NCBI RefSeq assembly: GCF_000590885.1
Contig: NZ_JFHN01000053.1
Location: 186,001 to 250,000 of the forward strand
Source: Erwinia mallotivora
Lineage (GTDB): Bacteria > Pseudomonadota > Gammaproteobacteria > Enterobacterales > Enterobacteriaceae
DNA: 64,000 bases
Direction: 5' to 3'
How positions within the stretch are numbered: the first letter of the stretch is position 1; every line of letters begins with the position of its first letter. A program made the translations under genes and the position numbers. This document shows, one piece after another, positions 27,456 through 64,000 of this stretch. A model generated the notes under the pieces. The model made no database searches. It worked only from the letters and a program-made list of their open reading frames with translations, and was not told the origin of the DNA.

Positions 27456-30400
27456 ATGACCGATTATGTGAAAAGACCAGAAAATGTCTTTAAAGTAAAT
27501 ACTGAGCTACAGGTGTTTAATGAAAGCGATAATGGTAATGACCTGAAAGGAACATTACAGGCTAATGTTAAATTTGTTCAAAGTCAGATTATTCCCGCGC
27601 ATCCAAAATCTGGCGATCAACAACCACACCTGATTGCAGGACGCAAAACACTGCTTCTGGTAAAACCACAAGGCCATTTCAGCCAGTTACATGTCTCGCT
27701 TTACGATCAATCTGGTAACTGCTCTGGCAAACTCTCCCTTCTGCCACCAGAACAACTGCCAAAGAGCGCTTACTACGTTAACAATGTTCCTGACGATATT
27801 ACTTTTTCTCCTTTACCCGGCAGCACCCTGTCGGTAAATACCAGCGCCCAGTTAACTCTGCTTAGTGATCCCACAGCCGCTTTTTTACTGTCCCAGTTGC
27901 AGAATCATTCTGTTGTCGAGATCAGAACAGCAGATGGTCGCTGGACAAGAAATATATTTTTACCGGAAAACGGCGTTTCGGAAGGAAAATTAATCCGTGT
28001 CATTTCTAACGCTGGTTACACGTCAACAATTACATTCAGTGGCCGAACAACCATAATATCCAGGGGGGATACTTTCCATTTTAAATATATTTCCGGCCAG
28101 TGGATTCTCGATACTGAACTGGCAAACCAGGGGATTACCTATGCATTAAATACCTGGAGCCTGAACATTCCCGGACGCTGGATTAAACCGGGCATATCGC
28201 TGAACCTGGAGGCGGATCGGTTATCAGGGCAACTTGATAATATTAATGTCGGAGCACCAACAGAATTACTGATCCACACCATTGATATAGGTATGCTGAT
28301 AACGCCACGCCATCAATTCTCTTTTGCCGATGATGCTGAAGCGCACAGAGAGTATTTCCAGACCGCCCCCATATCAAGAATGATCGTCAGTAATTACGAG
28401 TCCATTCATTTGACCGAAGTAAGGTTACCTGACGGTCGGCTGTTGACTGATTTCGATCCCAGTCAGGGCGGTATTTATGACGGCACAATGCGCCAGCGAA
28501 TCGGTAAAGAATTAATCTCGTTAGGAATAAATAATGCTAATTACGGCATCAATTCATCAGAAGGTGAAGGTGAATGGAGCCCTTATCTCACCGCTCAACT
28601 TACCGCCCATAACAGTCGCGGTAATTACGCGAATGGTGTAGTGATCCACGGCCTGTCTGGCGGCGGCGGTATAGTTACGCTCGAAGATTCGCTTGGAAAT
28701 GAATTCAGTCATGAGGTTGGACATAATTATGGCCTGGGGCATTACCCCGGTGGCTTTGACGGCTCAGTACACCAGTCAGCCGACTCAATCAATTCCACCT
28801 GGGGCTGGGACAGCGATCGTAATTATTTCCTGCCAAACTTCTCAACAAAAATCACCCAACGCCCATCATGCTATGGCGATCGATGCCAGCCCCCTTTTTA
28901 TGGGCGCTCATACGGATTTGATCCCATGGCCGGTGGTGCACCAATGGCCCCCATTAACCGATTCACGCTTTATACCCCTTACACTGCGGCAATTATCCAG
29001 CAATTCATGGAGAGTAAGCTGGTGTTTTCACCCGACTCTGTCACCGGATTCAGAAAATGGGATGCAACGACTCAGCGGATGCAGCCCTGCGAGCACAGAA
29101 TAAACGTTGTCAGCCCGGTAACCATATCAAACCGGGAATTGAGTGAGCAGACTTTTACATCGCTGCTTAACCATCACCAGGTAGTCAAAGTCTACATGGC
29201 TGATGGCAACTGGGCGCAGAACATCCCTGTTCCACCAGCCAGCGCGTTGAACAGGCACAAAATAATCACCGTTGAACATCACGCCAGCTGGAACAGCCAG
29301 CTTCACCTGAATGGCAAAACGATTCTGGTCACCAAAGGATTTAGCCAGAGCTATCGTTCGGAAGAAGCTGGCTGGACAGCATGCATCCTGGTAGATGCGG
29401 ATACACGCCGTATTTATGCCGGTCATAATCAACTGGGTGCGCAACAACTGAGCGATCTGCTGGCCCGCTATCAGCTGGTCACCCTTTCACCCGATGATAA
29501 GTTCAAGCAAGAAGAGATTCATCTACCCGCTGCATCCCGGGAGAATGCCGGCAAAACTATTCGTGTGGAAAATTCTACAAGCCATATGCTCACCCTGGTG
29601 GCTGACGGTCAGTCTGTTAAAACCGGACCTGGTGAAGAAAGACACTTTTTTTCAGATGGTGGAAAATGGCTTGATAACCTGACTTACCAGGATAACAGCG
29701 TTGCTGTTAAGCCAGTCTCTTTTGGTGTGCCAGTCACCACCCTGGTCGGTTATTACGATCCCGAAGGCAAGTTGCCTGCATCTGTTTTTCCAGCGCTACA
29801 TGGCGCTTATGGTTATCTGTATCAGGAGCCCCCCTCGCAGTTAACTGATGCTGACTGCCAGCTGATTGTTGAGTCTGAAAATCAGGTGCTCCGTTTCAGA
29901 CTGGAGAACAAACGGTTGAGAAGTGGAGTAATGAATAAATTCCATATCAACGTTGCAGAATCACAGCAATCCCGCACGGTTAAGCTGATGTGCAATGGCA
30001 AGGTGGTCTGTAGCAGAGTTATTCAGCCAGCCCGTACGGCGCTGAATTACACCATCAATGGGGAAGCCACGCCAGACATCCCGATGCCAGACGGACTTGT
30101 GGTTACAGAAACCACGGCTGATTCCGTATCTCTGACATGGAACAGGTGGGATGAGGCTACGGAATACGTTGTCTACCGTAATGATGGTCTGCTGGCATCC
30201 GTCTCTCTGCCCGGCTATACCGATGCCGGTCTTGAGGAAAACACAGAGTACCGCTACCGGTTTGGCGCAGTTTATGGCGACGGGAGCCACACTGCATTAA
30301 GTGATGAAATCATAGCAATCACTAAAGTCACATCGAATTTACCCCCTGCGCCACCTGTTAACCTGCGCTCTGTGTCGGCAACGGAAAACAGTATCAGCCT

Positions 30401-30788
30401 GGTATGGGATATGCCGGTCGCCACCGCGCCGCTGGCATTTTTCAACCTGTATCGCGGCGAAAATAACGGCATTATCAGCGCGCTGGCCCGCGTGCCTGCC
30501 TCGCGCTCTGACTATCACGATACCGGGCTGAGTGCCAGCACCCGCTATCGCTATTTCGTTACCGCCAGCGACATTAACGACAGCACCTCGACGCCGGGTA
30601 ATACGCTGGAAGTCACCACGGCGGCGGCGAGTAGCCTGCCTCAGTGGGTACTCGGCGGCACCTGGCAGGCGGGCGAAAAAGTCAGCTATCAAAACAGGGA
30701 GTGGATTTGTATCCAGACGCACACCGCCTGGGTTATCAGCTGGGCTCCGGGTACTGCCGATTCCGTGGCCCTGTGGCAACCAGCCTGA
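27456..30788 (+). CDS. Large M66 (StcE-like) metzincin with FN3 and chitin-binding-like domains
   Basis: 1110 aa. The N-terminal half resembles the M66 family (LQANVKFVQSQIIPAHPKSGD, DQQPHLIAGRKTLLLVKP). The extended metzincin site HEVGHNYGLGH (residues 419-429; His codon at 28710) supplies three zinc ligands and the catalytic Glu, as in the mucinase StcE. Repeated beta modules of about 90 residues follow (EIRTADGRW..., VKVYMADGNW...). Two fibronectin type III domains lie at about 873-957 and 963-1055, and a C-terminal WVLGGTWQAGEKVSYQNREW...W segment resembles CBM5/12 chitin-binding modules. No signal peptide is visible, so the secretion route is unclear. Likely a secreted protease acting on mucin-type or chitin-associated host glycoproteins (inference). 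Confidence 0.85.
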   Translation: MTDYVKRPENVFKVNTELQVFNESDNGNDLKGTLQANVKFVQSQIIPAHPKSGDQQPHLIAGRKTLLLVKPQGHFSQLHVSLYDQSGNCSGKLSLLPPEQLPKSAYYVNNVPDDITFSPLPGSTLSVNTSAQLTLLSDPTAAFLLSQLQNHSVVEIRTADGRWTRNIFLPENGVSEGKLIRVISNAGYTSTITFSGRTTIISRGDTFHFKYISGQWILDTELANQGITYALNTWSLNIPGRWIKPGISLNLEADRLSGQLDNINVGAPTELLIHTIDIGMLITPRHQFSFADDAEAHREYFQTAPISRMIVSNYESIHLTEVRLPDGRLLTDFDPSQGGIYDGTMRQRIGKELISLGINNANYGINSSEGEGEWSPYLTAQLTAHNSRGNYANGVVIHGLSGGGGIVTLEDSLGNEFSHEVGHNYGLGHYPGGFDGSVHQSADSINSTWGWDSDRNYFLPNFSTKITQRPSCYGDRCQPPFYGRSYGFDPMAGGAPMAPINRFTLYTPYTAAIIQQFMESKLVFSPDSVTGFRKWDATTQRMQPCEHRINVVSPVTISNRELSEQTFTSLLNHHQVVKVYMADGNWAQNIPVPPASALNRHKIITVEHHASWNSQLHLNGKTILVTKGFSQSYRSEEAGWTACILVDADTRRIYAGHNQLGAQQLSDLLARYQLVTLSPDDKFKQEEIHLPAASRENAGKTIRVENSTSHMLTLVADGQSVKTGPGEERHFFSDGGKWLDNLTYQDNSVAVKPVSFGVPVTTLVGYYDPEGKLPASVFPALHGAYGYLYQEPPSQLTDADCQLIVESENQVLRFRLENKRLRSGVMNKFHINVAESQQSRTVKLMCNGKVVCSRVIQPARTALNYTINGEATPDIPMPDGLVVTETTADSVSLTWNRWDEATEYVVYRNDGLLASVSLPGYTDAGLEENTEYRYRFGAVYGDGSHTALSDEIIAITKVTSNLPPAPPVNLRSVSATENSISLVWDMPVATAPLAFFNLYRGENNGIISALARVPASRSDYHDTGLSASTRYRYFVTASDINDSTSTPGNTLEVTTAAASSLPQWVLGGTWQAGEKVSYQNREWICIQTHTAWVISWAPGTADSVALWQPA

Positions 30789-53225: not shown

Positions 53226-53810
53226 ATGCTGGCTTTGTGCTTAGATTACTTAAAAGAAAGGATGAATCAGTCTGTCAAAAGTGTGTTTGATTTAGCCGAT
53301 GACCTGGTGATTGTCTCTCCGCCAGCGGACCTTGATGGCTCAAAGTCACCTGAAAGACAAAATAAGATCCTCATTTTTATCAACAACATCGAAAAAGACA
53401 CATTTTCAAAAAGTTACCGACCTGAGTTCAACCACACAAACAACAGAAAAGCGGTATCATCGCAGCCGCTTTTTATCACCATGACGGTGACCGTCGCAGC
53501 GAACTTTAGTACGAACCATTACTCTGACGGATTAAAAGTGCTATCCCATTTTCTTGCTTTCTTCAATCGCCATAACAGCTTCAATCGTCAGAACTCCCCT
53601 GACCTCCCTGAAAATATTGAACAAATTAACATGGAGATGGAATCCATACCGGGTGAACAATTAAACCATTTGTGGGGGATATTCGGCTCACACTATCTGC
53701 CTTCGTGCATTTACAGAGTGAGAGCACTGATCCCCGACAGTGAATCAGTTCTGTCTCAGGTAGGTAGCATTCATTTATCCGATACCACGATGGCAAAAAG
53801 AGAGAATTAA
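53226..53810 (+). CDS. eCIS terminator/cap protein (DUF4255; Afp16/Pvc16-like)
   Basis: 194 aa. The start at 53226 is chosen because AGGAA lies 6 bases upstream and the product (MLALCLDYLKERMNQSVK) then begins like DUF4255 proteins; a 17-codon upstream extension to 53175 has no such signal. Family features: an N-terminal helix, VIVSPPADLDGS, NKILIFINNIEKDTF, and the late NHLWGIFGSHYLPSCIYRVRAL segment. In Afp/PVC the homologue caps the tube and sheath and fixes particle length. Here it is first in the cluster, not last. Its stop abuts the next ATG. Confidence 0.85.
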   Translation: MLALCLDYLKERMNQSVKSVFDLADDLVIVSPPADLDGSKSPERQNKILIFINNIEKDTFSKSYRPEFNHTNNRKAVSSQPLFITMTVTVAANFSTNHYSDGLKVLSHFLAFFNRHNSFNRQNSPDLPENIEQINMEMESIPGEQLNHLWGIFGSHYLPSCIYRVRALIPDSESVLSQVGSIHLSDTTMAKREN

Positions 53811-54593
53811 ATGACAGGCTATCAATCAATCTTACTAATTAGCGTTATGCATGAGTATTACAATGCAAACAGCGATGGATTAGCGCCCTTTAAGATTATT
53901 CCAGACCGGGAAACAGCAGTGTTACTCCGTCAGTTCGGCATTCTGTTGAAATCAGCGCGGGGATTTACGCAGCTGATTGCTGAAACTGAACGGTTTGAGG
54001 ATTTGGCGGAGTTGACTGACAAAATCACCCTGAAATTTCATCTTATAAGCACGGCCCCTGCTATCAGAAGCATCACAAAAATGCCCGGGATGTTCAATAT
54101 TTCAACTGTCCATGCAGAATTTACCGATAGCCCAGCGCTGGATATTAATGCAGAAAACTGGGCTGATATAAACCCGTCGAATACAACCATCGCCAGTAAT
54201 GATGTTGCCGTCTTTAATAAAAATTTAATCAGCATACTCACTATTACTCTTCCGCAGCGTCACTTAACTCTGGAGAAGAAATCTGTTACGGTCAGATTTA
54301 ATGCCATCTCGGCCAACTGGAAATACTATATATTTTCGTCGGATGGTAAAAAAAACCTCGGTATTTCTCACTTATTTACCGAGCAGCCGAATGAAAAAAT
54401 CGCCAATAAAACGGCAAGAGTTTTTTTATCTGACAATCCAATACCCCTGAGGGAAGTTTACACAGAATATTTCTCATTATCAGATGACAAAAAAATCATC
54501 ATGAAATCCCTGCCCCTCCCTGCTCCGGATAATATTTCAACATTTATCTCCGACGGAATAAAAAAATCCATCGCTCATATTTACATCAACTGA
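53811..54593 (+). CDS. Unknown eCIS-associated protein
   Basis: 260 aa, no signal peptide or membrane segment. The N-terminus YQSILLISVMHEYYNANSDG, followed by LAPFKIIPDRETAVLLRQFGILLKSARGF, looks like a family I have seen beside sheath genes in other contractile systems, but I cannot name it. The rest is rich in beta structure (TLKFHLISTAP, VTVRFNAISANWKYYIF). It starts directly at the stop of the DUF4255 gene (TAAATG), so the two are one transcription unit, possibly assembly partners. It may be a structural or assembly factor; not determined. Confidence 0.6.
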   Translation: MTGYQSILLISVMHEYYNANSDGLAPFKIIPDRETAVLLRQFGILLKSARGFTQLIAETERFEDLAELTDKITLKFHLISTAPAIRSITKMPGMFNISTVHAEFTDSPALDINAENWADINPSNTTIASNDVAVFNKNLISILTITLPQRHLTLEKKSVTVRFNAISANWKYYIFSSDGKKNLGISHLFTEQPNEKIANKTARVFLSDNPIPLREVYTEYFSLSDDKKIIMKSLPLPAPDNISTFISDGIKKSIAHIYIN

Positions 54594-54638
54594 TCATGCT
54601 GTGGCACCAACTCCTCTGATTACCAGCCTTCATACGTG

Positions 54639-54794
54639 ATGCGGTCTGAACGTTACGGTGAAAAATGGCAGGCCGGCTGAAAACGCACACTGCGCGATCA
54701 ATACCAGCAAAAGCCAGATGGATTGTTTTTCGACTGCCCCGATTACTGTGGCCATTTTGATGACATGATAAAAGCCCTTAACGCCAGGTTATGA
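54639..54794 (+). pseudogene. Possible remnant of a coding sequence
   Basis: A 52-codon frame (MRSERYGEKWQAG, one internal TGA, then KRTLRDQYQQKPDGLFFDCP...HFDDMIKALNARL, stop) reads like protein rather than random sequence, with the TGA possibly a former TGG. It stands alone in the gap before the sheath promoter. No family recognised; it could be a toxin or effector tail left by recombination. Confidence 0.3.
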
Positions 54795-54929
54795 TTTTCA
54801 TCATAAATTTCAATGGGTTAAAAAATTAGCTCCATAAATTCCCGGCTAAACAGCACCTGCACATCCCTGTAAACAGATGGGTAATGATGAAAAATGTGAT
54901 CTGACTTTTTCGACAACTTCAGTTGATAG

Positions 54930-54958
54930 TTGACAGAAAACTCAGAAAAAGTTATACA
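54930..54958 (+). promoter_or_regulatory. Sigma-70 promoter of the eCIS structural operon
   Basis: TTGACA (54930-54935), exactly 17 bases, TATACA (54953-54958): near-perfect consensus. It gives a leader of about 108 bases before the sheath start, enough room for post-transcriptional control. No operator recognised. Confidence 0.75.
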
Positions 54959-55073
54959 AACACATCAGTATTCTTAATCAGATAGTTCTTAATCTCAGGC
55001 CTTTCTTAACAGCGTTTTTTCTGTGTGCTGGCAGTCGGCATGGTTGCAATTCAATTACATGAAGGTCCAAACT

Positions 55074-56633
55074 ATGGGCGTAATGAAAACACCTGGCGTA
55101 TATATAGTTGAGCAAAATGCATTCCCGAACTCTGTTGTTGAAGTTGCCACTGCGGTTCCCGCATTTATCGGATATACAGAAAAAGCGGATAACGGCGGTA
55201 AATCGCTAAGCAATCAGGGATGGCGTATTACTTCGATGTCCGAATATCGTCAATACTTCGGTGGAGAACCCCAGCATTTATTTGAAATAGCCGAAATTGG
55301 TAAAACTGCGGATGCTAATACCCGGGAAGCATTTAAGCAGTCGGGAAAAACTTACCAGATTACGCAATCAAATACCCGCCATCATCTTTATTACAGCATG
55401 CTATTTTTCTTTCAAAATGGCGGCGGCCCATGTTATATCGTTTCAGTGGGTAATTACTCAGACGATATCGATGCCGGGATATTAAAGGCAGGCATTATGC
55501 CTTTAATTAAAGAAGCTGAACCCACCATGCTGCTTATTCCAGAAGCAATACAGCTGGCAGAAGATGATTGTATTAATGTTCAGCAGGCTATGCTTGGGCA
55601 TTGCGGCGGTAAGATGAAAAACCGCATTGCGATTTTAGATATCTGGAATGGTTACAAAGATCGTCAGCATCCTGATGGTGACTGTATTGAAAACTTCCGT
55701 TCTAAACTGGGTACTAATTATCTCGATTATTCATCTGCCTATTACCCGTGGCTGAACACCTCAATCGTGCAGGACAGCGACGTCAGTTTCCTGAACATCA
55801 GCAATATCGATAAGCTGGCAGAATTGCTTAACAGCGAAGTTGCTGCGGTGTTCAGTGATTTAGAAGGTCTCACTGAAGAAGAACTCAGCACAGGCGGTAA
55901 TAAGCTGAGAGCGACACGCAAACAGGCCATGCTTGATGAAATTGCTAAGTTAAGCGGCCAGCTGTCAAGACCTGATGCGGTGCTATTGCATAAGATCCTT
56001 TCGAATATGAGTGCGCTGTACCAAACCATCATGGCGGACATCAAATTCCAGCAAAATATCCTGCCACCCTCTGCGGCGATGGCCGGTATTTATACCATGG
56101 TCGACAACTCACGCGGCGTATGGAAAGCCCCCGCTAACGTCAGCGTCAACGCGGTTGTCTCGCCAACCGTTAATATCAGCGATGATGAGCAGGAAGATTT
56201 AAACGTAACAACTCAGGGTAAATCGATTAACGCTATACGCCCCTTTATCGGTGAAGGTACGTTGGTCTGGGGAGCAAGAACGCTTGATGGCAACAGCCTG
56301 GACTGGCGATATATCAACGTCAGACGCACGATGATTATGCTACAGGAGTCAATTAAGCTGGCCTCCAAAGCCTATGTCTTTGAGCCCAATGTCGCCAATA
56401 CCTGGGTTTCGATGGAAAGTATGCTGGGTAATTTCCTCTACGGTATCTGGAAACGAGGCGGATTAGCCGGTTCAACGCCGGGTGAAGCTTACAATGTGAG
56501 CGTCGGTCTGGGTAAGACAATGACCGGAAACGATATCCTGGAAGGTATTTTGCGTATTACCGTGCTGGTGGCGATGGTACGACCGGCTGAATTTATCGAA
56601 ATCACCTTCCAGCAAAAGATGCAGGAATCGTAG
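55074..56633 (+). CDS. eCIS contractile sheath protein (Afp2-4/Pvc2-4-like)
   Basis: 519 aa from ATG 55074, which has GAAGG 8 bases before it and the family start MGVMKTPGVYIVEQNAFPNSVVEVATAVPAFIGYTEKA (in part). An upstream GTG at 55023 is rejected. The N-terminal PGVY segment, the AVPAFIGYTEKA motif, a variable middle domain (about 150-330), and the C-terminal INVRRTMIMLQESIKLASKAYVFEPN and GEAYNVSVGLGKTMT segments are typical of phage-tail-like sheath subunits. The final EFIEITFQQKM strand forms the inter-subunit mesh. Only one sheath gene is seen, whereas Afp and PVC have three. Confidence 0.93.
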   Translation: MGVMKTPGVYIVEQNAFPNSVVEVATAVPAFIGYTEKADNGGKSLSNQGWRITSMSEYRQYFGGEPQHLFEIAEIGKTADANTREAFKQSGKTYQITQSNTRHHLYYSMLFFFQNGGGPCYIVSVGNYSDDIDAGILKAGIMPLIKEAEPTMLLIPEAIQLAEDDCINVQQAMLGHCGGKMKNRIAILDIWNGYKDRQHPDGDCIENFRSKLGTNYLDYSSAYYPWLNTSIVQDSDVSFLNISNIDKLAELLNSEVAAVFSDLEGLTEEELSTGGNKLRATRKQAMLDEIAKLSGQLSRPDAVLLHKILSNMSALYQTIMADIKFQQNILPPSAAMAGIYTMVDNSRGVWKAPANVSVNAVVSPTVNISDDEQEDLNVTTQGKSINAIRPFIGEGTLVWGARTLDGNSLDWRYINVRRTMIMLQESIKLASKAYVFEPNVANTWVSMESMLGNFLYGIWKRGGLAGSTPGEAYNVSVGLGKTMTGNDILEGILRITVLVAMVRPAEFIEITFQQKMQES

Positions 56634-56707
56634 ATTCTGTCCTCTGCATGGCATGTGAATAGCATTCAATATTATCGAATATAACCAATTATTCTCAGGA
56701 GATACCT

Positions 56708-57178
56708 ATGGCAGATGACGGTTCAGCTCAATCCGAAACAGTATGGCCAATGCCGAAATTTCATTTCGAAGTGAAATGGGATGGTGGCGCTGGCGCTGGC
56801 ATGGTTTCTGCATTTCAGGAAGTATCCGGTCTTGATTTAGAATCACAACCCATCGAATATCGCGCGGGAAACAGCCCGGTATTTTCCACGATAAAAATGC
56901 CCGGATTGATTAAAACCGGCAACGTCACGCTTAAGAAGGGTATTTTTAAAAGTGATAACAAGTTCTACACGTGGTATTCGAAGATCAAGATGAACACCAT
57001 CGCCCGAACCGCCGTCACCATAAATCTGTTAGATGAAAGCGGGGCGCCAGTGATGAGCTGGAAACTAAAAAATGCCTGGCCGACCAAAGTTACCGGTACC
57101 GATTTAAAATCGGACAGTAATGAAGTGGCGGTTGAAACCATTGAACTTGCCCATGAAGGTCTGGAAATCTCCGTTTGA
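56708..57178 (+). CDS. eCIS inner tube protein (Afp1/Pvc1-like)
   Basis: 156 aa. Hcp/gp19-like beta-barrel subunit that stacks as hexamers into the tube propelled by the sheath. WPMPKFHFEVKWDGGAG, SAFQEVSGLDLESQPIEYR and IKTGNVTLKKGIFKSDNKFYTWY are hallmark segments. AGGAG precedes the ATG. It follows the sheath gene by 74 bases. Confidence 0.93.
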   Translation: MADDGSAQSETVWPMPKFHFEVKWDGGAGAGMVSAFQEVSGLDLESQPIEYRAGNSPVFSTIKMPGLIKTGNVTLKKGIFKSDNKFYTWYSKIKMNTIARTAVTINLLDESGAPVMSWKLKNAWPTKVTGTDLKSDSNEVAVETIELAHEGLEISV

Positions 57179-57227
57179 TTTCTGTCATTGAGCAAAAACC
57201 TATTTCCTGAATACAGAAAGAATCACC

Positions 57228-57704
57228 ATGGAAAGCCAAAAAGGTACGGGTGCAGTACAGGGCGATGGCGACTGGCCCCTTCCCGCTTTCTACTTCAGCG
57301 TTTCTGTCAGTGGCTGTGCTGATGACACAGCCTTTCAGGAAGTTTCCGGACTGGAGTTCCAGATAGAAACTGAAGAGTATCGCGAGGGGGGCAATAACCT
57401 GGTTTATCATCTGCCCAAAAATATAAAAACCAGCAATTTAACGCTAAAGAGAGCCGTGACGGATAAAACATCCAAATTACTAAGCTGGTGTCTTGGCATT
57501 TTGAATGATGAGCTGTCCAAACCGATTGTGACGAAAAGTGTGTCGATAAATTTGTTAAATGAGAAAGGGACAACGTGCAGAAGCTGGACTGCCTCAAATG
57601 CCTATCCGGTGAAACTGAAGATGGCCCCTTTTAACTCGACCCAAAATGATATCGCCATTGAAGAGATCGAAATTTGTTTTAATCATTTGAAAAGGAACTT
57701 ATAA
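57228..57704 (+). CDS. eCIS second tube protein, tube-initiator type (Afp5/Pvc5-like)
   Basis: 158 aa, a diverged paralogue of the preceding tube protein (WPLPAFYFSVSVSGC, TAFQEVSGLEFQIETEEYREGG, NIKTSNLTLKRAV). In Afp/PVC the Afp5-type subunit forms the first ring, joining tube to spike. Four cysteines distinguish it from the main tube protein. Directly before the Afp6-like small gene. Confidence 0.9.
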   Translation: MESQKGTGAVQGDGDWPLPAFYFSVSVSGCADDTAFQEVSGLEFQIETEEYREGGNNLVYHLPKNIKTSNLTLKRAVTDKTSKLLSWCLGILNDELSKPIVTKSVSINLLNEKGTTCRSWTASNAYPVKLKMAPFNSTQNDIAIEEIEICFNHLKRNL

Positions 57705-57706
57705 CC

Positions 57707-57877
57707 GTGCCAATAGAAATAAAGCAGCTTGTGATTAAGTCAAAAACAATAAATGACGATAATAAAAACGCGTCTTTCGACTCTGAACGGCCAGATTATA
57801 ATGCTGAAAAAAACCAGCCAGAGAAAACACTCCCTTATCACTTTATAAAAGCAACTGATACAGTAAGAGAAAGATAA
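57707..57877 (+). CDS. Small eCIS protein (Afp6/Pvc6-like, DUF5908)
   Basis: 56 aa, GTG start at 57707 two bases after the tube gene stop, with AAGGA upstream. It begins MPIEIKQLVIKSKT, the signature of the short DUF5908 proteins encoded at this position in Afp/PVC loci, and ends HFIKATDTVRER. Its Asn/Lys/Glu-rich middle is low complexity. It is shorter than common ORF cut-offs and has a non-ATG start, so it is easily missed. Role in assembly unknown. Confidence 0.8.
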   Translation: MPIEIKQLVIKSKTINDDNKNASFDSERPDYNAEKNQPEKTLPYHFIKATDTVRER

Positions 57878-57902
57878 GTGATTTGAATAAAGGGAGTCCA
57901 TC

Positions 57903-58556
57903 ATGGAAAAAATAACGATAAAATCAATCACCTCTAAAGGAAGTGTTGCGCAAACATTTTCGGCGACGTTGAATCCGGGCAGCATTAAACATAATTTTGG
58001 TATCAGCTATACCAACAGAGGTCCACAGCAGCAGGGGGACATTTCACCGACCACCACCTTTAAAGGCTATGACAGCGAAAAACTGGACTTCGAACTGCTC
58101 ATTGATGGAACAGGGGTAACGGGCAATACCAGCACCAACACCGTGCAGAAGCAGCTTGCCACGCTAAAAAAAGTGACCTACGCCTATAATGGTGAGCAGC
58201 ATGAACCCTATGCGGTGGTGATATCCTGGGGGACATCCGTCAGCTTTCAGGGACGTCTGACCTCTATCAGTATCAATTACTCTCTGTTTGACTCCTCCGG
58301 TAATCCATTGCGAGCGACGGTAGCGCTGAGCTTTGCAAAATATTTAACGCAAAAAGAAAAAAGCGCTTTAAAGAAACAGTCCTCTCCGGACCTGACTCAC
58401 ATTATTGAATTCAGGGCAGGAGATACGCTTCCAATGCTATGTCACAAGATCTATAACGACAGCAGTTACTATATTGAGGTAGCCCGGAAAAATAATTTAG
58501 CCAGCGCACGACAGATCAAGCCCGGTACAAAAATTTACTTTCCACCTTTAATTTAA
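57903..58556 (+). CDS. eCIS LysM-domain baseplate hub adaptor (Afp7/Pvc7-like)
   Basis: 217 aa. The N-terminal domain (FSATLNPGSIKHNFGISY) resembles phage gp53/hub adaptor proteins. A C-terminal LysM domain lies at about 168-217 (FRAGDTLPMLCHKIYNDSSYYIEVARKNNL...KPGTKIYFPPL). In Afp/PVC it clamps tube initiator to spike and baseplate; LysM here is structural. Lies between the Afp6-like gene and the spike gene. Confidence 0.92.
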   Translation: MEKITIKSITSKGSVAQTFSATLNPGSIKHNFGISYTNRGPQQQGDISPTTTFKGYDSEKLDFELLIDGTGVTGNTSTNTVQKQLATLKKVTYAYNGEQHEPYAVVISWGTSVSFQGRLTSISINYSLFDSSGNPLRATVALSFAKYLTQKEKSALKKQSSPDLTHIIEFRAGDTLPMLCHKIYNDSSYYIEVARKNNLASARQIKPGTKIYFPPLI

Positions 58557-58570
58557 ACATCGGGTTAATT

Positions 58571-60364
58571 ATGGCTATATCTCCATTAAGTGATGACAGT
58601 ACCGGGGTAACCACCTGGACCATTAAAATTGATGGCAAAGCGATTGACAGCGCCATTGGCGTTATCGCTATCCATGTTCGGTACCAGATAAATCATATCG
58701 CTACTGCGGAGCTCACCATCAGCGATGGCGATATGCCTTCTCAACGCTTTGATGTCAGCGATGCCGATACCTTTAAACCGGGAGCGACTATTTCTGTTTC
58801 TGCTGGCTATGCAAGTGATGAAAAAACAATCTTCGAAGGGATTATTATCAGCCACGGACTAGAAATTACGGCGAATAACAGTTCATTCCTGAATATTGTT
58901 TGTAAAGATCAGGCAATAGCAATGACTATTGCTAAACACAGCCAGTGTTTTCTTGCTCAATCTGACAGTAAAATAATCAGCGCGCTGCTGGCTAAATACC
59001 CCAACATTACCAGCTCCGTCGGCAGCATTACCGACCCCTGGCCTGAGCTTGTCCAGTTTAACAGCACTGACTGGGACTTTATCCTTACGCGCGCCGAAGC
59101 AAATGGCTTTGTGGTCACCAACCAGTGCAATAAGGTGACGGTTGATAAACCTGCAACAAGCACTGCGGCGGCCCTCGTGGTGACCTGGGGCACAGATTTA
59201 ATCTCGTTCTCGGCAAAAACAGATGCGCGAAACCAACTCAGTTCTGTCACCGCGACCGCGTGGGATTCTGCCAGTCAAAACATGGTAACAGGCTCCGGTT
59301 CAGCTCAGTCCATCGCAGGGCAAGGCACCTTCACCAGCGCAGATTTAGCGAAGGTATTGGGCATCAGTGATTACCGGCTACAAACCGCCTCAACCATCAG
59401 CACTGATGCTCTGACTCGCTGGGCTAATGGTCATCAGGTAAAAGCCATGCTGAGTAAGGTTCGGGGCAGCGTCACTTTTCAGGGAAACGCCAGCGCCACC
59501 ATTAACAGCTTACTGGAGCTCTCAGGTGTGGGTGAGCGCTATAACGGTTCACACTATGTTGGTGGCATTCATCACAGTATTGAGAAAGGTCAGTGGATCA
59601 CCACGGCTGAACTGGGGATGTCGCCGATGTGGTCGGCGGAACATCGTGATATCGCCGCCCCGCCAGCGTCAGGGTACTTACCCCCCGTCGATGGGCTGCA
59701 AATCGGCATCGTGACCAAATTAGATGGCGATCCGGATTCCAGTTATCGCATTCAGATAAAACTGCCGACGCTGGATAACGACTCCAGTTTAATCTGGGCG
59801 CGATTAGCCAGCTTCTACGGTTCATCAGGCTGCGGAAATTTTTTCATTCCTGAAATCGGTGATGAGATGATTGTGGGCTTTATCAATCAGGACCCCAGCA
59901 ATCCCGTTATTCTTGGCTCACTGTACAGCAGTAGAAATATAATGCCTGAAGAGATTACGGCCGATAATTATATTAAAACCATCGTAACCAAAAGTAAGAT
60001 GAAAATTATTTTTGACGATGAAACCAGCATCATGACCTTAATAACACCCAACGGCAACTCTGTGGTGATGAGCGATAAAGACAAATCTGTCACGCTGACC
60101 GATCAAAACAGTAATACGATAAGCATGGGTGAAAGCGGTATTGCTATTAACAGCAGTAAAGATATTACTATTACCGCGAAAGGGTCGGTCAGTATTAACT
60201 CCACACGCGATACCATCGTTAAAGCGACAGGCGATGCTAACATCTCCGCTTTAAATGTTTCAGCGCAGGCCAATACCGGGTTAACGCTTAAAGGAAATAC
60301 AACCGCTGAACTTTCCTGTTCAGGAATAACGACCATCAAAGGCACGCTGGTCAAAATTAATTAG
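58571..60364 (+). CDS. eCIS central spike protein (Afp8/Pvc8, VgrG-like)
   Basis: 597 aa. gp27-like N-terminal part (about 1-360; IFEGIIISHGLEI, WDFILTRAEANGFVV) followed by an OB-fold gp5-like domain (about 375-455; GIVTKLDGDPDSSYRIQIKLPTLDND...WARLASFYGSSGCGNFFIPEIGDEMIVGF, in parts) and a repetitive beta-helix tail (NSNTISMGESGIAINSSKDI..., SINSTRDTIVKATGDANIS). It forms the trimeric puncturing spike. The following PAAR gene caps it. Confidence 0.93.
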   Translation: MAISPLSDDSTGVTTWTIKIDGKAIDSAIGVIAIHVRYQINHIATAELTISDGDMPSQRFDVSDADTFKPGATISVSAGYASDEKTIFEGIIISHGLEITANNSSFLNIVCKDQAIAMTIAKHSQCFLAQSDSKIISALLAKYPNITSSVGSITDPWPELVQFNSTDWDFILTRAEANGFVVTNQCNKVTVDKPATSTAAALVVTWGTDLISFSAKTDARNQLSSVTATAWDSASQNMVTGSGSAQSIAGQGTFTSADLAKVLGISDYRLQTASTISTDALTRWANGHQVKAMLSKVRGSVTFQGNASATINSLLELSGVGERYNGSHYVGGIHHSIEKGQWITTAELGMSPMWSAEHRDIAAPPASGYLPPVDGLQIGIVTKLDGDPDSSYRIQIKLPTLDNDSSLIWARLASFYGSSGCGNFFIPEIGDEMIVGFINQDPSNPVILGSLYSSRNIMPEEITADNYIKTIVTKSKMKIIFDDETSIMTLITPNGNSVVMSDKDKSVTLTDQNSNTISMGESGIAINSSKDITITAKGSVSINSTRDTIVKATGDANISALNVSAQANTGLTLKGNTTAELSCSGITTIKGTLVKIN

Positions 60365-60383
60365 CAACGAGCGGAATTGATAT

Positions 60384-60683
60384 ATGTCCTTTGCAGCAAG
60401 AATTACGGACCTACAGATGTGTCCGATGGCTACCCCGGCGCTTCCCCCTGTTCCTCATGTTGGTGGCCCAATTGCAGGACCGGGTGTCCCGACGGTGTTA
60501 ATTGGATCGTTACCCGCCGCGGTGCTGGGGGATAGCTGCGTCTGCGTTGGCCCGCCATCTACCATCATCAAAGGTTCTGCCACCGTGCTGATTGGCGGCA
60601 AACCTGCGGCAAGAATGGGTGACAGCACCAGTCACGGAGGCACTATCGCGCTGGGGTGCCCCACGGTCATTATTGGCGGTTAA
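60384..60683 (+). CDS. eCIS spike-tip PAAR protein (Afp10/Pvc10-like)
   Basis: 99 aa. PAAR repeat fold: MCPMATPALPP, GPGVPTVLIGSLPAAVLGD, GSATVLIGGKPAARMGDSTSHGG, GCPTVIIGG. Cys and His residues at the usual places can bind zinc at the tip. Effectors often attach to this protein. It precedes the gp25-like gene, the reverse of the Afp/PVC order (Afp9 then Afp10). Confidence 0.93.
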   Translation: MSFAARITDLQMCPMATPALPPVPHVGGPIAGPGVPTVLIGSLPAAVLGDSCVCVGPPSTIIKGSATVLIGGKPAARMGDSTSHGGTIALGCPTVIIGG

Positions 60684-60711
60684 TTATCGCCAACGGGATA
60701 GCGTGAAATTT

Positions 60712-61161
60712 ATGGCAAACAACAACGCATTTTTAGGAACAGGCTGGGCATTTCCCCCCAGCTTTACCGGGCCTCATCACCAGGTGGTGATGAGTTCTGA
60801 TATTCAGGATATTGAACAGAGTTTAACCATTCTCCTCTCCACCACGCCTGGGGAGCGCCTGATGACGCCCGATTTCGGCTGCCGGATTAATCATTTTGTC
60901 TTTGAGGAGCTCACGCAGACGGTATTAACCCAGCTGACAGCAGAAATTCGCCATGCCATTTTATTTTTCGAATCACGCATTAATGTCGAAGATGTGCATT
61001 TTTTACCCGATCCGCTCTCAGGGAAATTACTTATTCAAATTGACTACAGCGTTATTACCACCAACACCCGTAGCAATATGGTTTATCCCTTCTATTTAAA
61101 CGAAGGCACCTTAATATCGCCGCAGCTACTCCCGTTATCTGACGAGTGGGATATCGCTTAA
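60712..61161 (+). CDS. eCIS gp25-like baseplate wedge protein (Afp9/Pvc9-like)
   Basis: 149 aa from ATG 60712 (MANNNAFLGTGWAFPPSF); GTG 60703 three codons earlier is possible. The longer open frame from 60592 overlaps the PAAR gene and is rejected. gp25 signatures: IEQSLTILLSTTPGERLMTPDFGCRI and FFESRINVEDVHFLPD. Its lysozyme-like fold initiates sheath polymerisation in contractile systems. Its TAA overlaps the next ATG (TAATG). Confidence 0.92.
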   Translation: MANNNAFLGTGWAFPPSFTGPHHQVVMSSDIQDIEQSLTILLSTTPGERLMTPDFGCRINHFVFEELTQTVLTQLTAEIRHAILFFESRINVEDVHFLPDPLSGKLLIQIDYSVITTNTRSNMVYPFYLNEGTLISPQLLPLSDEWDIA

Positions 61162-64000
61162 TGACCTCACGGCAACAGCGGCAGGATGAGGCGATAAACT
61201 CATCCATGTTTAATCCCCATGAACTCAGCTTTGAGCAATTAGTCGTTTGGGCGTATCAGTTTGCTCAACAGTTGCCGTTCAGAAACCTGGCGGATCAGCC
61301 TGACGGTCACTGGGGGAATTTGTTTCAACAAAGTGAAATCGTGGTCTGTGCCGCGATAGCCACCTGTAATACAAAACATATTCAGGCAGAATTTAAGCAA
61401 GCCCTGGCACGTGGTGAAAACGTGACCGTCGAGTTTTTACTCATTTTGTTAAAACGGATGCAGGAGTGGTATCAACATCTGCCAGACACCCCGGAAACCG
61501 CTTACCAGCTTAAATATCATCTGCTGCATGAATATCAGTATCACCTTTCATTACCGCTAAGCCTGGTGATAACCCGATTACCTGAGCAATTCCGTCACAG
61601 CCTGCAATCGCTTGATCCGTTATGGAATCTTGATCAACACACGCTGGATAGCGCATCGCCGGTATTGCAGCACAGCAGCTTTGGTGAACAGATGCGCCAC
61701 TGCTTTGCCAAAATAGTCTATGTCATTGAACAGATAAAACAGCAAAGCCAGCAGGTATTGCAGGCCGCTTTAATGCATCAGGAAAATAACCCGCAGCAGG
61801 CGCTTTATTTTGCCTTCCTGAAGTTGTTCGAACGAGCACAACAGAGCCTGAATCAGTTCACGGAAAAACATCTGCAATTTTATTATCAGCAGGTTTTGCA
61901 ACAGGATAAGAATCCGCCACCAGAGAATTCGATCTACCTGAAGCTCTCATTAAACAACCGAACCCAGAATACCCTTCTGTTTGAGCAAGGTGCCGGGTTC
62001 AGTCCAGGCGATGACCCTGACTTTAAGCCGATCGTTTATCGTAGCCTTTACCCGATTGAAGTCACGGATGCCGAGGTGTCGCACATCTTCAACCTGACCT
62101 TACAGCGCGACCCGCTGGTTTCACCCGAAAAGGAATCGGGCCTGGTGTGCGGCGTCAGCGGACAGCGTCTGCGTATAGCAGCAGCTGCCGCCGGGGACAA
62201 TTTCCCGAAAGAACAGCAATTTAATATATTTAATAACAAGTACAAAACCGAAGACAGCACGCAGCCGATGGGGCTGGTCATCACCGATCCCTTATTTTCG
62301 ATGCAGCAGGGCAACCGCAGCATCGATATCGTGATTCATCTCAAGGAGGTACGTTCAGGCATTGTTGCCCAGGAATTACTGGCGGTGGATGATGATGATA
62401 AAACCAGCGCAGCCCTGACGCGCGTATTCACCCATTTACTCACTCTGCATGCCCATCTGCTGGAAGACTGGTCCGCGCGGATAAGCGCTGTCAGGCTGGC
62501 AGAGCAGGTAAAAGCAGAGCAGCTCAGCAGGTTTCGGCATCTCAAACCGTCACAGCGTGTCTGGGGGGCCTGTAAATTATTTTTTCTGCAAATGCTCCAG
62601 TTTATATGTTCAACCCCGGACGAAGGGATGCAATATGGCCTTGCCAGGACAGAGCTGCTGTTTCGGGTCATCGGTCAGATAGTCAGCCGACGCGCACTGT
62701 ACACGGTACCGTGGTTAACCGAATCCGAGAGCGCAGAGGTCCTCAGCGGTTTAAAACCCATTTTTGCAGAAGATTCAACGGCTTACACTACGATAAAAGC
62801 GCTGCTCTGCCACTCGGCCACGGCGACTTTTTATCAACTCTTTGAGGGTGTATTCCATATTGAAGCCTCAACCGAAAATGGTTGGGAGGTGCTTGATAAT
62901 GTGGAAATTTATCCCTGCGCCCCCCACGAGTGTGAAACGGGATTCAGGGTGAAATGTCATGTGGATACCGGCTTTGCGCCCGTCATCTCCCGCCATGCGC
63001 ATCTGCTGCACAGTGCATCGCTGAGAATAACCCTGAAGCGACAAAGCAACTGCTTTCCCTACGCTATTTTCCGCGATTTTGAATTAGCAAAACTGGCGAT
63101 GTCGGCACAGGTCAGCGGCGTAACCCGGATGCAATTATTTAACCCTGAGGGGCAAATTGATTCCTCGCAGCCCTTCTTCTTATTTGGTTCCCAGCCTTAT
63201 CCCGATGCTTATGCGGTGATAGCTAACGAAGAAATTGCCCGGAAAAACCTTAACCAGTTGCTGCTGCACCTTGACTGGGGGAATCTGCCGCGAGGTTCAG
63301 ATGGCTTCAGCGAATACTATGCTGAATACCCTTATCCCTACACCAACGCCAGTTTCCAGATTCGTGCAGAAATGCTCAGTAACGGGCAGTGGGTTGAACC
63401 CGCCCCGACTACCTTACCGTTATTTACGCCAGCCAGCGGCGCACTTCACCATCACAGACATTTTCATTTTCCGCATATCAAAAACGGCTACACGCCGGTG
63501 ACCCACCCCTGGCCAAAGACGCCCTACAGTAACCAGTCTGGGTTACGTAATGGGTTATTTAAGCTGAAGTTAACCGGCCCGGAGCCGGCATTTGGCCACA
63601 AAAGCTACGCCCCGTTGCTGAGTGAGACACTCACTTACAACGTCAGCAAAAAGCATAAAAGAACGCTGCCCGCTCCGCCTTATACGCCGCTGGTCACCCG
63701 GATTGCCATCGACTATTCCGCGGAGTCGACCATTGATTTATTAAGCGTCGACGGTCACAGCCAGAGTGAAATTGTGCACCTGCACCCTTTTGGCGAAAAC
63801 GTCATTTATCCGCCAAAGCAGACTCACCAGCTCCACAGGCCGCGATTCTTTCCGAATTACGAAGAAGACAGCCACTGCTTTATCGGGATCACCGCGACCG
63901 AATTATCGGGATATTTAAATATTTTCTTCGTGTTTGACGGTAACTCCCGCCTGCTGACGCCCTTTCCGTCTACCGCTTATCGCTGGTATTACCTGGTGGA
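61161..64000 (+). CDS. Large eCIS baseplate protein (Afp11/12-like), truncated by the window end
   Basis: ATG 61161 overlaps the gp25 stop; the frame stays open for 946 codons to the end of the window. The N-terminal 300 residues are helical and Gln/His-rich. SIYLKLSLNNRTQNTLLFEQGAGFSPGDDPDFKPIVYRS (about residues 258-296, in parts) and QPFFLFGSQPYPDAYAVIANEEI, LLLHLDWGNLPRGSDGFSEYY and TRIAIDYSAESTIDL resemble the large gp6-like wedge component of eCIS baseplates (Pvc11/Pvc12 group). Which of the two it is, or whether the two are fused, cannot be decided without the remainder. It would form the baseplate ring around the spike. Confidence 0.85.
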   Translation, partial: MTSRQQRQDEAINSSMFNPHELSFEQLVVWAYQFAQQLPFRNLADQPDGHWGNLFQQSEIVVCAAIATCNTKHIQAEFKQALARGENVTVEFLLILLKRMQEWYQHLPDTPETAYQLKYHLLHEYQYHLSLPLSLVITRLPEQFRHSLQSLDPLWNLDQHTLDSASPVLQHSSFGEQMRHCFAKIVYVIEQIKQQSQQVLQAALMHQENNPQQALYFAFLKLFERAQQSLNQFTEKHLQFYYQQVLQQDKNPPPENSIYLKLSLNNRTQNTLLFEQGAGFSPGDDPDFKPIVYRSLYPIEVTDAEVSHIFNLTLQRDPLVSPEKESGLVCGVSGQRLRIAAAAAGDNFPKEQQFNIFNNKYKTEDSTQPMGLVITDPLFSMQQGNRSIDIVIHLKEVRSGIVAQELLAVDDDDKTSAALTRVFTHLLTLHAHLLEDWSARISAVRLAEQVKAEQLSRFRHLKPSQRVWGACKLFFLQMLQFICSTPDEGMQYGLARTELLFRVIGQIVSRRALYTVPWLTESESAEVLSGLKPIFAEDSTAYTTIKALLCHSATATFYQLFEGVFHIEASTENGWEVLDNVEIYPCAPHECETGFRVKCHVDTGFAPVISRHAHLLHSASLRITLKRQSNCFPYAIFRDFELAKLAMSAQVSGVTRMQLFNPEGQIDSSQPFFLFGSQPYPDAYAVIANEEIARKNLNQLLLHLDWGNLPRGSDGFSEYYAEYPYPYTNASFQIRAEMLSNGQWVEPAPTTLPLFTPASGALHHHRHFHFPHIKNGYTPVTHPWPKTPYSNQSGLRNGLFKLKLTGPEPAFGHKSYAPLLSETLTYNVSKKHKRTLPAPPYTPLVTRIAIDYSAESTIDLLSVDGHSQSEIVHLHPFGENVIYPPKQTHQLHRPRFFPNYEEDSHCFIGITATELSGYLNIFFVFDGNSRLLTPFPSTAYRWYYLV

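What the first reader, a model, noticed from the sequence alone, without database searches (positions are those of the whole stretch)
53226..64000. Extracellular contractile injection system with a non-Afp/PVC gene order
All core modules are recognisable: cap, sheath, two tubes, Afp6-like, LysM, spike, PAAR, gp25 and large baseplate. Afp and PVC instead run tube-sheath x3-tube-6-7-8-gp25-PAAR-11...15-cap. Here the cap gene and an unknown gene lead, there is one sheath gene, and PAAR precedes gp25. This suggests a distinct eCIS lineage with possibly different length control and cargo loading. The cargo genes must lie beyond 64000.
Basis: partly seen in the sequence, partly recalled or inferred. 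Interest (0 to 1): 0.85.

Follow-up and report, generated by a model that had tools for sequence, protein, structure and literature searches.

The report
Enterobacterial SalCIS-type contractile injection system
The locus is a complete spring-loaded protein injector, related to an enterobacterial machine whose structure is already deposited; its least expected part is a membrane-anchored protein that may dock the injector inside the cell and whose relative seems to have been listed elsewhere as a toxin.

Summary
The window holds the left part of a complete contractile injection system (CIS); the rest (baseplate, fibre-like protein, tape measure, membrane protein, cargo, AAA+) lies in the next 14.6 kb, before mutS. 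The gene order is not Afp/PVC. It is the order of CIS clade Ib (AlgoCIS-like); the "unknown gene" is the cap adaptor Cis16B. The lineage is not new: Protein Data Bank chains, two of them named SalCis12 and SalCis16b, are close orthologues. A sheath tree puts it with Bacteroidota sheaths, outside Afp/PVC. Loci of the same order sit sporadically in Mangrovibacter, Cedecea, Symbiopectobacterium and others.

New here is a reading of the operon's last gene. It has a signal-peptide-like start, a peptidoglycan-binding-like part, a degenerate GH18 (chitinase-fold) part and three membrane helices, and is related to GH18 membrane proteins in Bacteroidota CIS loci. It co-occurs with one well-conserved fibre-like protein. 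By gene order the Dickeya "toxin" EAT3 is this protein. I infer docking at the inner membrane rather than a classical extracellular system; this is not shown. The window's own cargo gene appears broken. New member of a known kind.

The parts
53226..53810 (+). cap protein Cis16A (Pvc16_N/DUF4255), 194 aa
   Evidence: Pfam PF14065 9.7e-28; 9r9n_B 383 bits, AlgoCIS cap 50 bits, tCIS All3327 43 bits
   Evidence: 9r9n_C 'SalCis16b - cap' 357 bits; match in 7 of 392 family genomes including this one
55074..56633 (+). single sheath protein Cis2, 519 aa
   Evidence: PF17482 5.3e-10; 9r9h_T 1117 bits
56708..57178 (+). inner tube Cis1
   Evidence: PF06841 9.2e-50; 9r9h_B 324 bits
57228..57704 (+). second tube protein, Cis5 by position
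   Evidence: PF06841 1e-37; not itself searched against deposited chains
57707..57877 (+). Cis6-like small protein, GTG start, 56 aa
   Evidence: DUF5908 4.7e-5, below curated cut-off
57903..58556 (+). Cis7 (CIS_tube domain)
58571..60364 (+). spike Cis8 (VgrG-like)
   Evidence: PF04717 7.5e-20; 9rce_F 1095 bits
60384..60683 (+). PAAR tip Cis10
   Evidence: PF05488 5.1e-25
60712..61161 (+). baseplate wedge gp25, Cis9, 149 aa
   Evidence: PF04965 4.5e-23 for this start
61161..64000 (+). Cis11 large baseplate protein, cut by the window edge (ends at 65132 in window numbering). Further parts lie outside the window (window numbering = L004 position + 64000): fibre-like F306 65125-65970 +; Cis12 from about 65930 to 68341 +; CIS_TMP tape measure 68338-72441 +; membrane protein MEM 72453-75167 +; cargo piece 75311-75880 -; eCIS_core cargo 75832-77160 -; AAA+ Cis15 77238-78611 -; then mutS from 79287
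   Evidence: 9rce_A 2535 bits; for the rest

Best explanation
This is a complete clade-Ib CIS, orthologous to the deposited 'SalCIS', sitting as an island between an lldD-like gene and mutS (confidence about 0.97; shown by sequence). Proposed working: a CIS_TMP ruler sets tube length; the cap Cis16A and adaptor Cis16B close the distal end; an AAA+ ATPase and the eCIS_core protein load cargo bearing an N-terminal signal into the tube (inferred from known systems). The particle is assembled in the cytoplasm. Instead of a variable receptor-binding fibre it has one conserved fibre-like protein (F306). I infer that F306 or the baseplate docks on MEM, which is held in the inner membrane by three C-terminal helices, with a peptidoglycan-binding-like and a degenerate GH18 part in the periplasm. 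Contraction would then happen from inside, on contact or at envelope damage or lysis (inferred, confidence about 0.45). The window's own cargo gene looks broken, so this copy may carry no working payload, or one that is encoded elsewhere. The overall confidence below is for the whole statement and is not exclusive of a recent loss of function.
For: Orthology: sheath 1117, spike 1095, Cis11 2535, Cis12 1304 (chain named SalCis12), Cis16A 383, Cis16B 357, tube 324 and MEM 1438 bits to deposited chains. The sheath score lies within that of the six close relatives, which are 89-95% identical (1085-1154 bits). Lineage: in the tree of 28 sheaths the window, 9 same-type loci and 3 Bacteroidota form a set with 100/100 support. 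Same gene order in Bacteroidota blocks. MEM: three C-terminal hydrophobic helices in 10 of 10 rows of A1 by hydropathy (in two rows the first is barely over the threshold), and three plus an N-terminal segment in 5 of 5 homologues from other families. PG_binding_1 over its cut-off (1.9e-6) in one of three of those five that were scanned. Profile match of 15 MEMs (14 used) to 3 CIS-linked GH18 membrane proteins: probability 96.9, E 1.7e-10; reversed control E 0.1. F306 is present in 17 of 17 testable MEM loci and 3 of 3 GH18-membrane-protein loci, and gave no hit in 3 loci without MEM. In genus g122 F306 stays 51-52% identical, like the spike (48-50%), while Cis11 and Cis12 fall to 32-34%. Island: 5 of 36 other genomes of the genus have the lldD-like gene and mutS on one contig 9.6-21.4 kb apart; none of 35 same-genus genomes searched has a close sheath, three have distant ones.
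Against: Docking is not shown. Pfam found no GH18 in 8 of 8 MEMs scanned, and the profile match was not significant with single GH18 sequences (E 0.12, 0.11). The window's own MEM shows no N-terminal segment over the hydropathy threshold; its signal peptide is read by eye. Predicted topology leaves only short cytoplasmic segments to bind a baseplate. The F306-MEM link is confounded by descent, and Chromobacterium has a weak F306 hit (8.5e-5) without MEM in 26 kb. F306 has no significant deposited relative. AlgoCIS, of the same clade, is extracellular and was never seen anchored (PMC8894135 passages). No structure prediction was possible. Outside the family the eCIS_core ORFs are larger (213-544 aa in G518, G688, G647) and none was found in Vibrio L055, so a stand-alone core is not general.
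Confidence: 0.6

Rival explanations
1. A classical extracellular CIS: particles are freed by lysis and bind targets through F306; MEM is the lysis or release factor (periplasmic wall-binding protein with membrane helices), not a docking platform.
For: The closest characterised clade-Ib relative AlgoCIS is extracellular (PMC8894135 passages). One distant MEM has a peptidoglycan-binding domain over cut-off. EAT3, by gene order the Dickeya MEM, killed E. coli and yeast on expression (PMC8213781 passages).
Against: F306 is not variable as receptor-binding fibres tend to be (77-84% in six close relatives, 51-52% in g122, against 32-34% for Cis11 and Cis12). GH18 catalytic residues are degenerate in MEM (the motif is recalled), which speaks against wall hydrolysis.
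Confidence: 0.3
2. MEM is an injected toxin (chitinase type), as Geller et al. listed EAT3, and the CIS delivers it.
For: EAT3 = Dd1591_0669, 'Chitinase?', toxic to E. coli and yeast, three gene numbers from the fibre gene; MEM is GH18-related.
Against: Three membrane helices, with an N-terminal segment in many homologues. It lies in one fixed place in the same-type loci, unlike the variable cargo. A homologue has a deposited structure of its own (9r9a; that it belongs to the SalCIS set is inferred from orthology and neighbouring entry codes). GH18 motif degenerate.
Confidence: 0.07
3. A decaying, non-functional island.
For: The cargo is split into two overlapping frames whose parts each match one C. 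violaceum gene; a relative, G172, has its Cis11, tape measure, AAA+ and Cis16B in pieces.
Against: The 12 structural genes compared, MEM and AAA+ are open and align over nearly their whole length with G308; Cis6 and PAAR were not compared.
Confidence: 0.1
4. Afp/PVC relative with rearranged genes, or a prophage tail.
For: Shared core folds; an Afp/PVC-type locus occurs in the same genus (G027).
Against: Sheath tree and bit scores; one sheath and two cap genes; no head or integrase gene seen by eye in the ORF lists.
Confidence: 0.02

Closest known systems
SalCIS (Protein Data Bank 9r9h, 9r9i, 9r9n, 9rce, and by inference 9r9a; chains 'SalCis12', 'SalCis16b - cap')
   Same: Orthologues of cap, cap adaptor, sheath, tube, spike, Cis11, Cis12 and an 864-aa MEM protein
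   Different: Fibre-like F306 has no match among deposited chains, the AAA+ search listed no CIS chain at E up to 1e-20, and cargo was not compared. Source organism and paper not seen (the single 9rce hit is unrelated). That 'Sal' means Salmonella is my guess
AlgoCIS, MACs, T6SSiv (clade Ib)
   Same: Short cap plus separate adaptor; higher bit scores than Afp/PVC for AlgoCIS (PMC8894135 passages)
   Different: The AlgoCIS main text has no occurrence of GH18, chitinase or glycoside/glycosyl hydrolase and describes particles as never anchored; T6SSiv is attached to the inner membrane through the Alg11-like cage (passages)
Thylakoid-anchored CIS of Anabaena
   Same: Two-protein cap (PMC8894136 passages), strong spike and Cis11 similarity
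   Different: Anchored through Cis13 with its own membrane helix (passages); here F306 has no helix by hydropathy and the membrane part is a separate protein
Streptomyces CIS with CisA
   Same: A separate membrane protein serving a CIS, encoded after baseplate genes (PMC12237407 passages)
   Different: CisA is bitopic with a cytoplasmic N-terminus; MEM looks mostly periplasmic with three helices. No sequence comparison was made
Afp and PVC (clade Ia)
   Same: Core folds
   Different: Several sheaths, one long cap protein, other gene order, separate in the sheath tree

Membership tests
SalCIS type | Orthologues of the deposited structural proteins including Cis16B and MEM | tested here: met
   Eight chains matched, 324-2535 bits
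SalCIS type | Same mode of action as SalCIS | not testable with these tools
   No paper found
CIS clade Ib | Sheath groups with clade Ib rather than Ia | tested here: met
   AlgoCIS itself was not a row, its relation rests on bit scores
CIS clade Ib | Cap and separate cap adaptor | tested here: met
   feature from PMC8894135 passages
Afp/PVC (clade Ia) | Three or more sheath genes and one long cap protein | tested here: not met
   One sheath ORF in the locus and a 194-aa cap; cap lengths of 293-295 aa from PMC8894135 passages
Afp/PVC (clade Ia) | Sheath inside the Afp/PVC clade | tested here: not met
Extracellular CIS (mode) | Particles released and bound to targets by receptor-binding fibres | tested here: inconclusive
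   One conserved fibre-like gene only; release not testable
Membrane-anchored CIS (mode) | Baseplate attached to a membrane protein | not testable with these tools
   MEM has three helices; contact not shown
Prophage tail / R-tailocin | Head, integrase or phage lysis genes nearby | tested here: inconclusive
   None seen by eye in ORF lists; no dedicated search
GH18 enzyme (MEM) | Catalytic DGxDxDxE motif (recalled) | tested here: not met
   ADGITLDID in the window; D in place of E in 10 of 10 A1 rows; degenerate in 5 of 5 others, with R or D in that place
Canonical type VI secretion | TssJLM membrane complex | not tested
   No search made

The most novel reading that the evidence does not exclude
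A widespread branch of clade-Ib CISs, from Bacteroidota to Vibrio, Dickeya and enterobacteria, works as a membrane-docked injector. A GH18-derived pseudo-enzyme with three membrane helices and a cell-wall-binding part is the docking platform, and a conserved fibre-like protein is its baseplate partner. The 'toxin' EAT3 would be this platform in Dickeya, not a cargo. In the enterobacterial loci a stand-alone eCIS_core protein beside the AAA+ ATPase would act as a loading adaptor in trans for cargo that lacks the core.
Probability: 0.4. Interest if true: 0.75.

Novelty: new member of a known kind. Interest (0 to 1): 0.5.

Why it matters
How CISs that look extracellular choose between release, cytoplasmic firing and membrane attachment is open. 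This locus type has a specific candidate docking protein that can be deleted and tested. If right, one published eCIS toxin (EAT3) should be reread as a machine part. The stand-alone eCIS_core protein bears on the unsolved role of DUF4157: Danov et al. (PMC11297309, passages) suggested it may act as a chaperone in cis or in trans, and the window and its six relatives show both arrangements at the same place beside the AAA+ gene.

Tried and rejected
Rejected: Afp/PVC with rearrangement, prophage tail, new CIS lineage, new length control. Led nowhere: genome-contig scan with Cis16B (no relative; the genome search later found 6 others); MEM in viral contigs and plasmids, no relative; E. coli genomes, no match for DNA from the sheath to the start of the spike gene. 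Direct repeats: each edge searched on its own gave only weak pairs; between the two edges the longest shared word is 9 bases, which shuffles also give, so no attachment-site-like repeat was found. Anti-phage library: the AAA+ protein resembles IetA-type ATPases (2.3e-33), which I take as shared AAA+ ancestry; four structural proteins gave nothing. Papers on SalCIS and on GH18 in CISs (listing only): nothing on this protein. Single-sequence comparison of MEM with the GH18 proteins was not significant (E 0.12 and 0.11); it became so only with more rows (6.3e-5, 1.7e-10). One arbitrary stretch (L071:8500-9300) was scanned and not used. A promoter or terminator scan was not run.
Full report
What is there. 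The window is bases 186001-250000 of a 396,747-base contig of a 4.64-Mb, 75-contig genome. Reading 20 kb past the edge (L004) completes the locus. On the plus strand: Cis16A, Cis16B, sheath, tube, tube, Cis6-like, Cis7, spike, PAAR, gp25, Cis11, a 281-aa fibre-like protein (called F306 here), Cis12, a 1367-aa CIS_TMP tape measure (PF19268, 5.9e-90) and a 904-aa membrane protein (MEM). On the minus strand: a 189-aa ORF, a 442-aa eCIS_core protein (PF13699, 5.3e-13) and an AAA+ ATPase (1e-25). Then mutS, rpoS and nlpD follow; these three were named by eye from the translations. The fibre label for F306 rests on its place and on weak, not significant similarity to other proteins, among them tCIS Cis13 (All3316, E 0.49) and a chain named bd2133 (E 0.37).

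Relation to known systems. Deposited chains match eight of the proteins as close orthologues: sheath 9r9h_T 1117 bits, spike 9rce_F 1095, Cis11 9rce_A 2535, Cis12 9rce_B ('SalCis12') 1304, Cis16A 9r9n_B 383, Cis16B 9r9n_C ('SalCis16b - cap') 357, tube 9r9h_B 324, MEM 9r9a_B ('Uncharacterized protein') 1438. After these, the best CIS matches for sheath, tube, spike, Cis11 and Cis12 are AlgoCIS and Anabaena tCIS, well ahead of Afp/PVC: sheath 350 and 328 against 196 or less; spike 408 and 479 against 159; Cis11 215 and 227 against 78; Cis12 153 and 133 against 44; tube 173 and 169 against 81 (same calls; AlgoCIS figure first). I found no paper on SalCIS in a library that lacks most subscription journals and bioRxiv, so I do not know its published mode of action.

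Tree and order. In a tree of 28 sheaths the window joins nine same-type loci and Parabacteroides, Aureibacter and Persicobacter with 100/100 support. The ten sheaths from Serratia entomophila, Mycetohabitans and the same-genus genome G027, which have three or four sheath genes each, fall outside. The Bacteroidota plasmids show the same blocks: cap, hypothetical, sheath, tube, tube and sheath, tube, tube, small, Cis7, spike, PAAR, gp25 (labels from annotation). AlgoCIS passages describe a short cap and a separate cap adaptor.

Distribution. MEM, used as query, gave a match in 12 of 392 genomes of the family, ten of them essentially full length including this one. Five more of 369 genomes drawn from the class have a more distant MEM; in all five the order is tape measure, AAA+, MEM on one strand, whereas in the window type AAA+ and cargo are inverted behind MEM. 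Named carriers are Mangrovibacter phragmitis and M. plantisponsor, Cedecea neteri, Candidatus Symbiopectobacterium sp. NZEC151, Enterobacteriaceae bacterium 89, Vibrio maritimus (two records) and Dickeya oryzae. The ten family loci keep one gene order as far as genes were called. Gaps in that table: G339 lacks a called second tube and Cis7, G400 lacks gp25, the ORF in the Cis16B place of G266 has no significant match, G172 is broken, and PAAR was not in the reference set. The flanks differ: mutS for G000 and G172, pth/ychF-like genes for G308 and G324 (named by eye). Of 36 other genomes of the genus, five have the lldD-like gene and mutS on one contig 9.6-21.4 kb apart (G003, G033, G018, G025, G008) and no sheath match, so the CIS looks like one tenant of a variable interval; I did not read those intervals. 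Geller et al. reported no eCIS in Salmonella and 86% carriage in Dickeya (passages).

The membrane protein. Hydropathy finds three helices at the C-terminus in 10 of 10 A1 rows (in two rows the first scores 1.61 and 1.63, barely over the 1.6 threshold). An N-terminal segment passes the threshold in 4 of those 10, not in the window's own protein, whose signal peptide I read by eye. The five distant homologues have the three helices and an N-terminal segment. One of three scanned distant homologues passes Pfam's cut-off for PG_binding_1 (28.4 bits, 1.9e-6); the other two fall below it. Pfam reports GH18 in none of the 8 MEMs scanned. Aureibacter and Persicobacter psychrovividus encode, within their CIS loci, proteins that Pfam calls GH18 (1.1e-18, 8.2e-40) and that have the same plan: N-terminal segment, GH18 part, C-terminal helices (three in Persicobacter, two found in Aureibacter). 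With a 70% relative from Persicobacter sp. JZB09 they make the profile A3. MEM profiles match it: not with single GH18 sequences (E 0.12, 0.11), E 6.3e-5 and probability 64.5 with 10 against 3, E 1.7e-10 and probability 96.9 with 15 (14 used) against 3, while the reversed control gave E 0.1. One control is thin. The GH18 catalytic motif (recalled as DGxDxDxE) reads ADGITLDID in the window, with D where the acid E should be, and is degenerate in all 15; Persicobacter keeps the E. I take MEM as a wall-facing pseudo-enzyme held in the inner membrane.

EAT3. Geller et al. list Dd1591_0669 of Dickeya zeae Ech1591 as toxin EAT3, 'Chitinase?', active on E. coli and yeast, with the tail fibre gene numbered three higher (passages). 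In Dickeya oryzae L057 MEM is the third gene after F306, and the genes after it lie on the other strand. By gene order EAT3 is therefore MEM. I could not fetch Dd1591_0669 to prove it.

F306. It is found in 17 of 17 testable MEM loci (10 family loci, two Vibrio, one Dickeya, G768, G518, G688, G647; G575 is cut by its contig end) and in the three Bacteroidota loci with the GH18 membrane protein. It is not found in G054, G049 and Afp-type G027. Chromobacterium has a weak hit (8.5e-5) in a long ORF and no MEM in 26 kb. Parabacteroides and the viral contig L078 were too incomplete to judge. F306 stays 77-84% identical in the six close relatives and 51-52% in g122, where the spike is 48-50% and Cis11 and Cis12 are 32-34%.

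Cargo. In 6 of 6 family relatives with AAA+ beside the locus, the eCIS_core protein is a stand-alone 141-149-aa ORF next to it, 77-84% identical over 142-149 aligned residues to the start of the window's 442-aa protein. Eleven neighbouring cargo-like ORFs share, read by eye, an N-terminal stretch ending in a DNR motif; none has HExxH at the core position, one has it elsewhere. Some have deaminase or nuclease matches, and one an acetyltransferase match just under cut-off. The window is the exception: core and cargo are fused. Outside the family the picture differs: larger core ORFs in G518, G688 and G647 (213-544 aa), a 201-aa one in Vibrio L056 and none found in L055. The window's cargo part and the 189-aa ORF give weak matches (E 1e-4 and 4e-5, covering 15% and 30%) to two parts of one 1140-base gene of a Chromobacterium violaceum plasmid that also carries an eCIS. 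The match of the 189-aa ORF begins at its second residue, in the stretch that overlaps the other ORF. So the gene appears split by a frame change; an intact copy exists there. A separate small gene, such as an immunity gene, is not excluded. In g122 no AAA+ lies by the locus: a 69-70% homologue sits elsewhere in G400, G266 and Dickeya G447, but G339 has only a 34% match.

Reading. Shown: a complete clade-Ib CIS of SalCIS type with open structural genes. Well supported: MEM is a GH18-related membrane protein of CIS loci. Inferred: docking of the particle to MEM by F306 or the baseplate, and the loader role of the stand-alone core. The main rival is an ordinary extracellular CIS in which MEM serves release.

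Noticed in passing
G027 contig C112 (L067, L068): A genome of the same genus carries an Afp/PVC-type locus with four sheath ORFs, so both CIS types occur in the genus.
   Followed up: partly
G000 contig C40:3756-4253: A second sheath gene in the same genome (PF04984, 114.6 bits), probably a prophage or tailocin.
   Followed up: no
window 27456-30788: A 1110-aa protein with an HEVGHNYG motif, recalled as typical of StcE-like M66 metalloproteases; not searched.
   Followed up: no
G172 locus (L040, L041): The same system in pieces: Cis11 in four ORFs, tape measure, AAA+ and Cis16B split; a decayed copy.
   Followed up: partly
L078 (IMG/VR contig UViG_3300010151_000064): A contig classed as viral encodes a relative of the CIS-linked GH18 membrane proteins, perhaps a CIS taken for a phage.
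   Followed up: no
L058 (NZ_OY725765.1): A Parabacteroides distasonis plasmid carries a cap-adaptor-sheath-tube-tube block; its sheath is the best match in the plasmid collection (53%).
   Followed up: partly
L035:6909-18930 (Mangrovibacter phragmitis): The interval between MEM and AAA+ has swollen to about 12 kb with three cargo-like ORFs, a XylR-like regulator and other metabolic genes, a cargo hot spot.
   Followed up: partly
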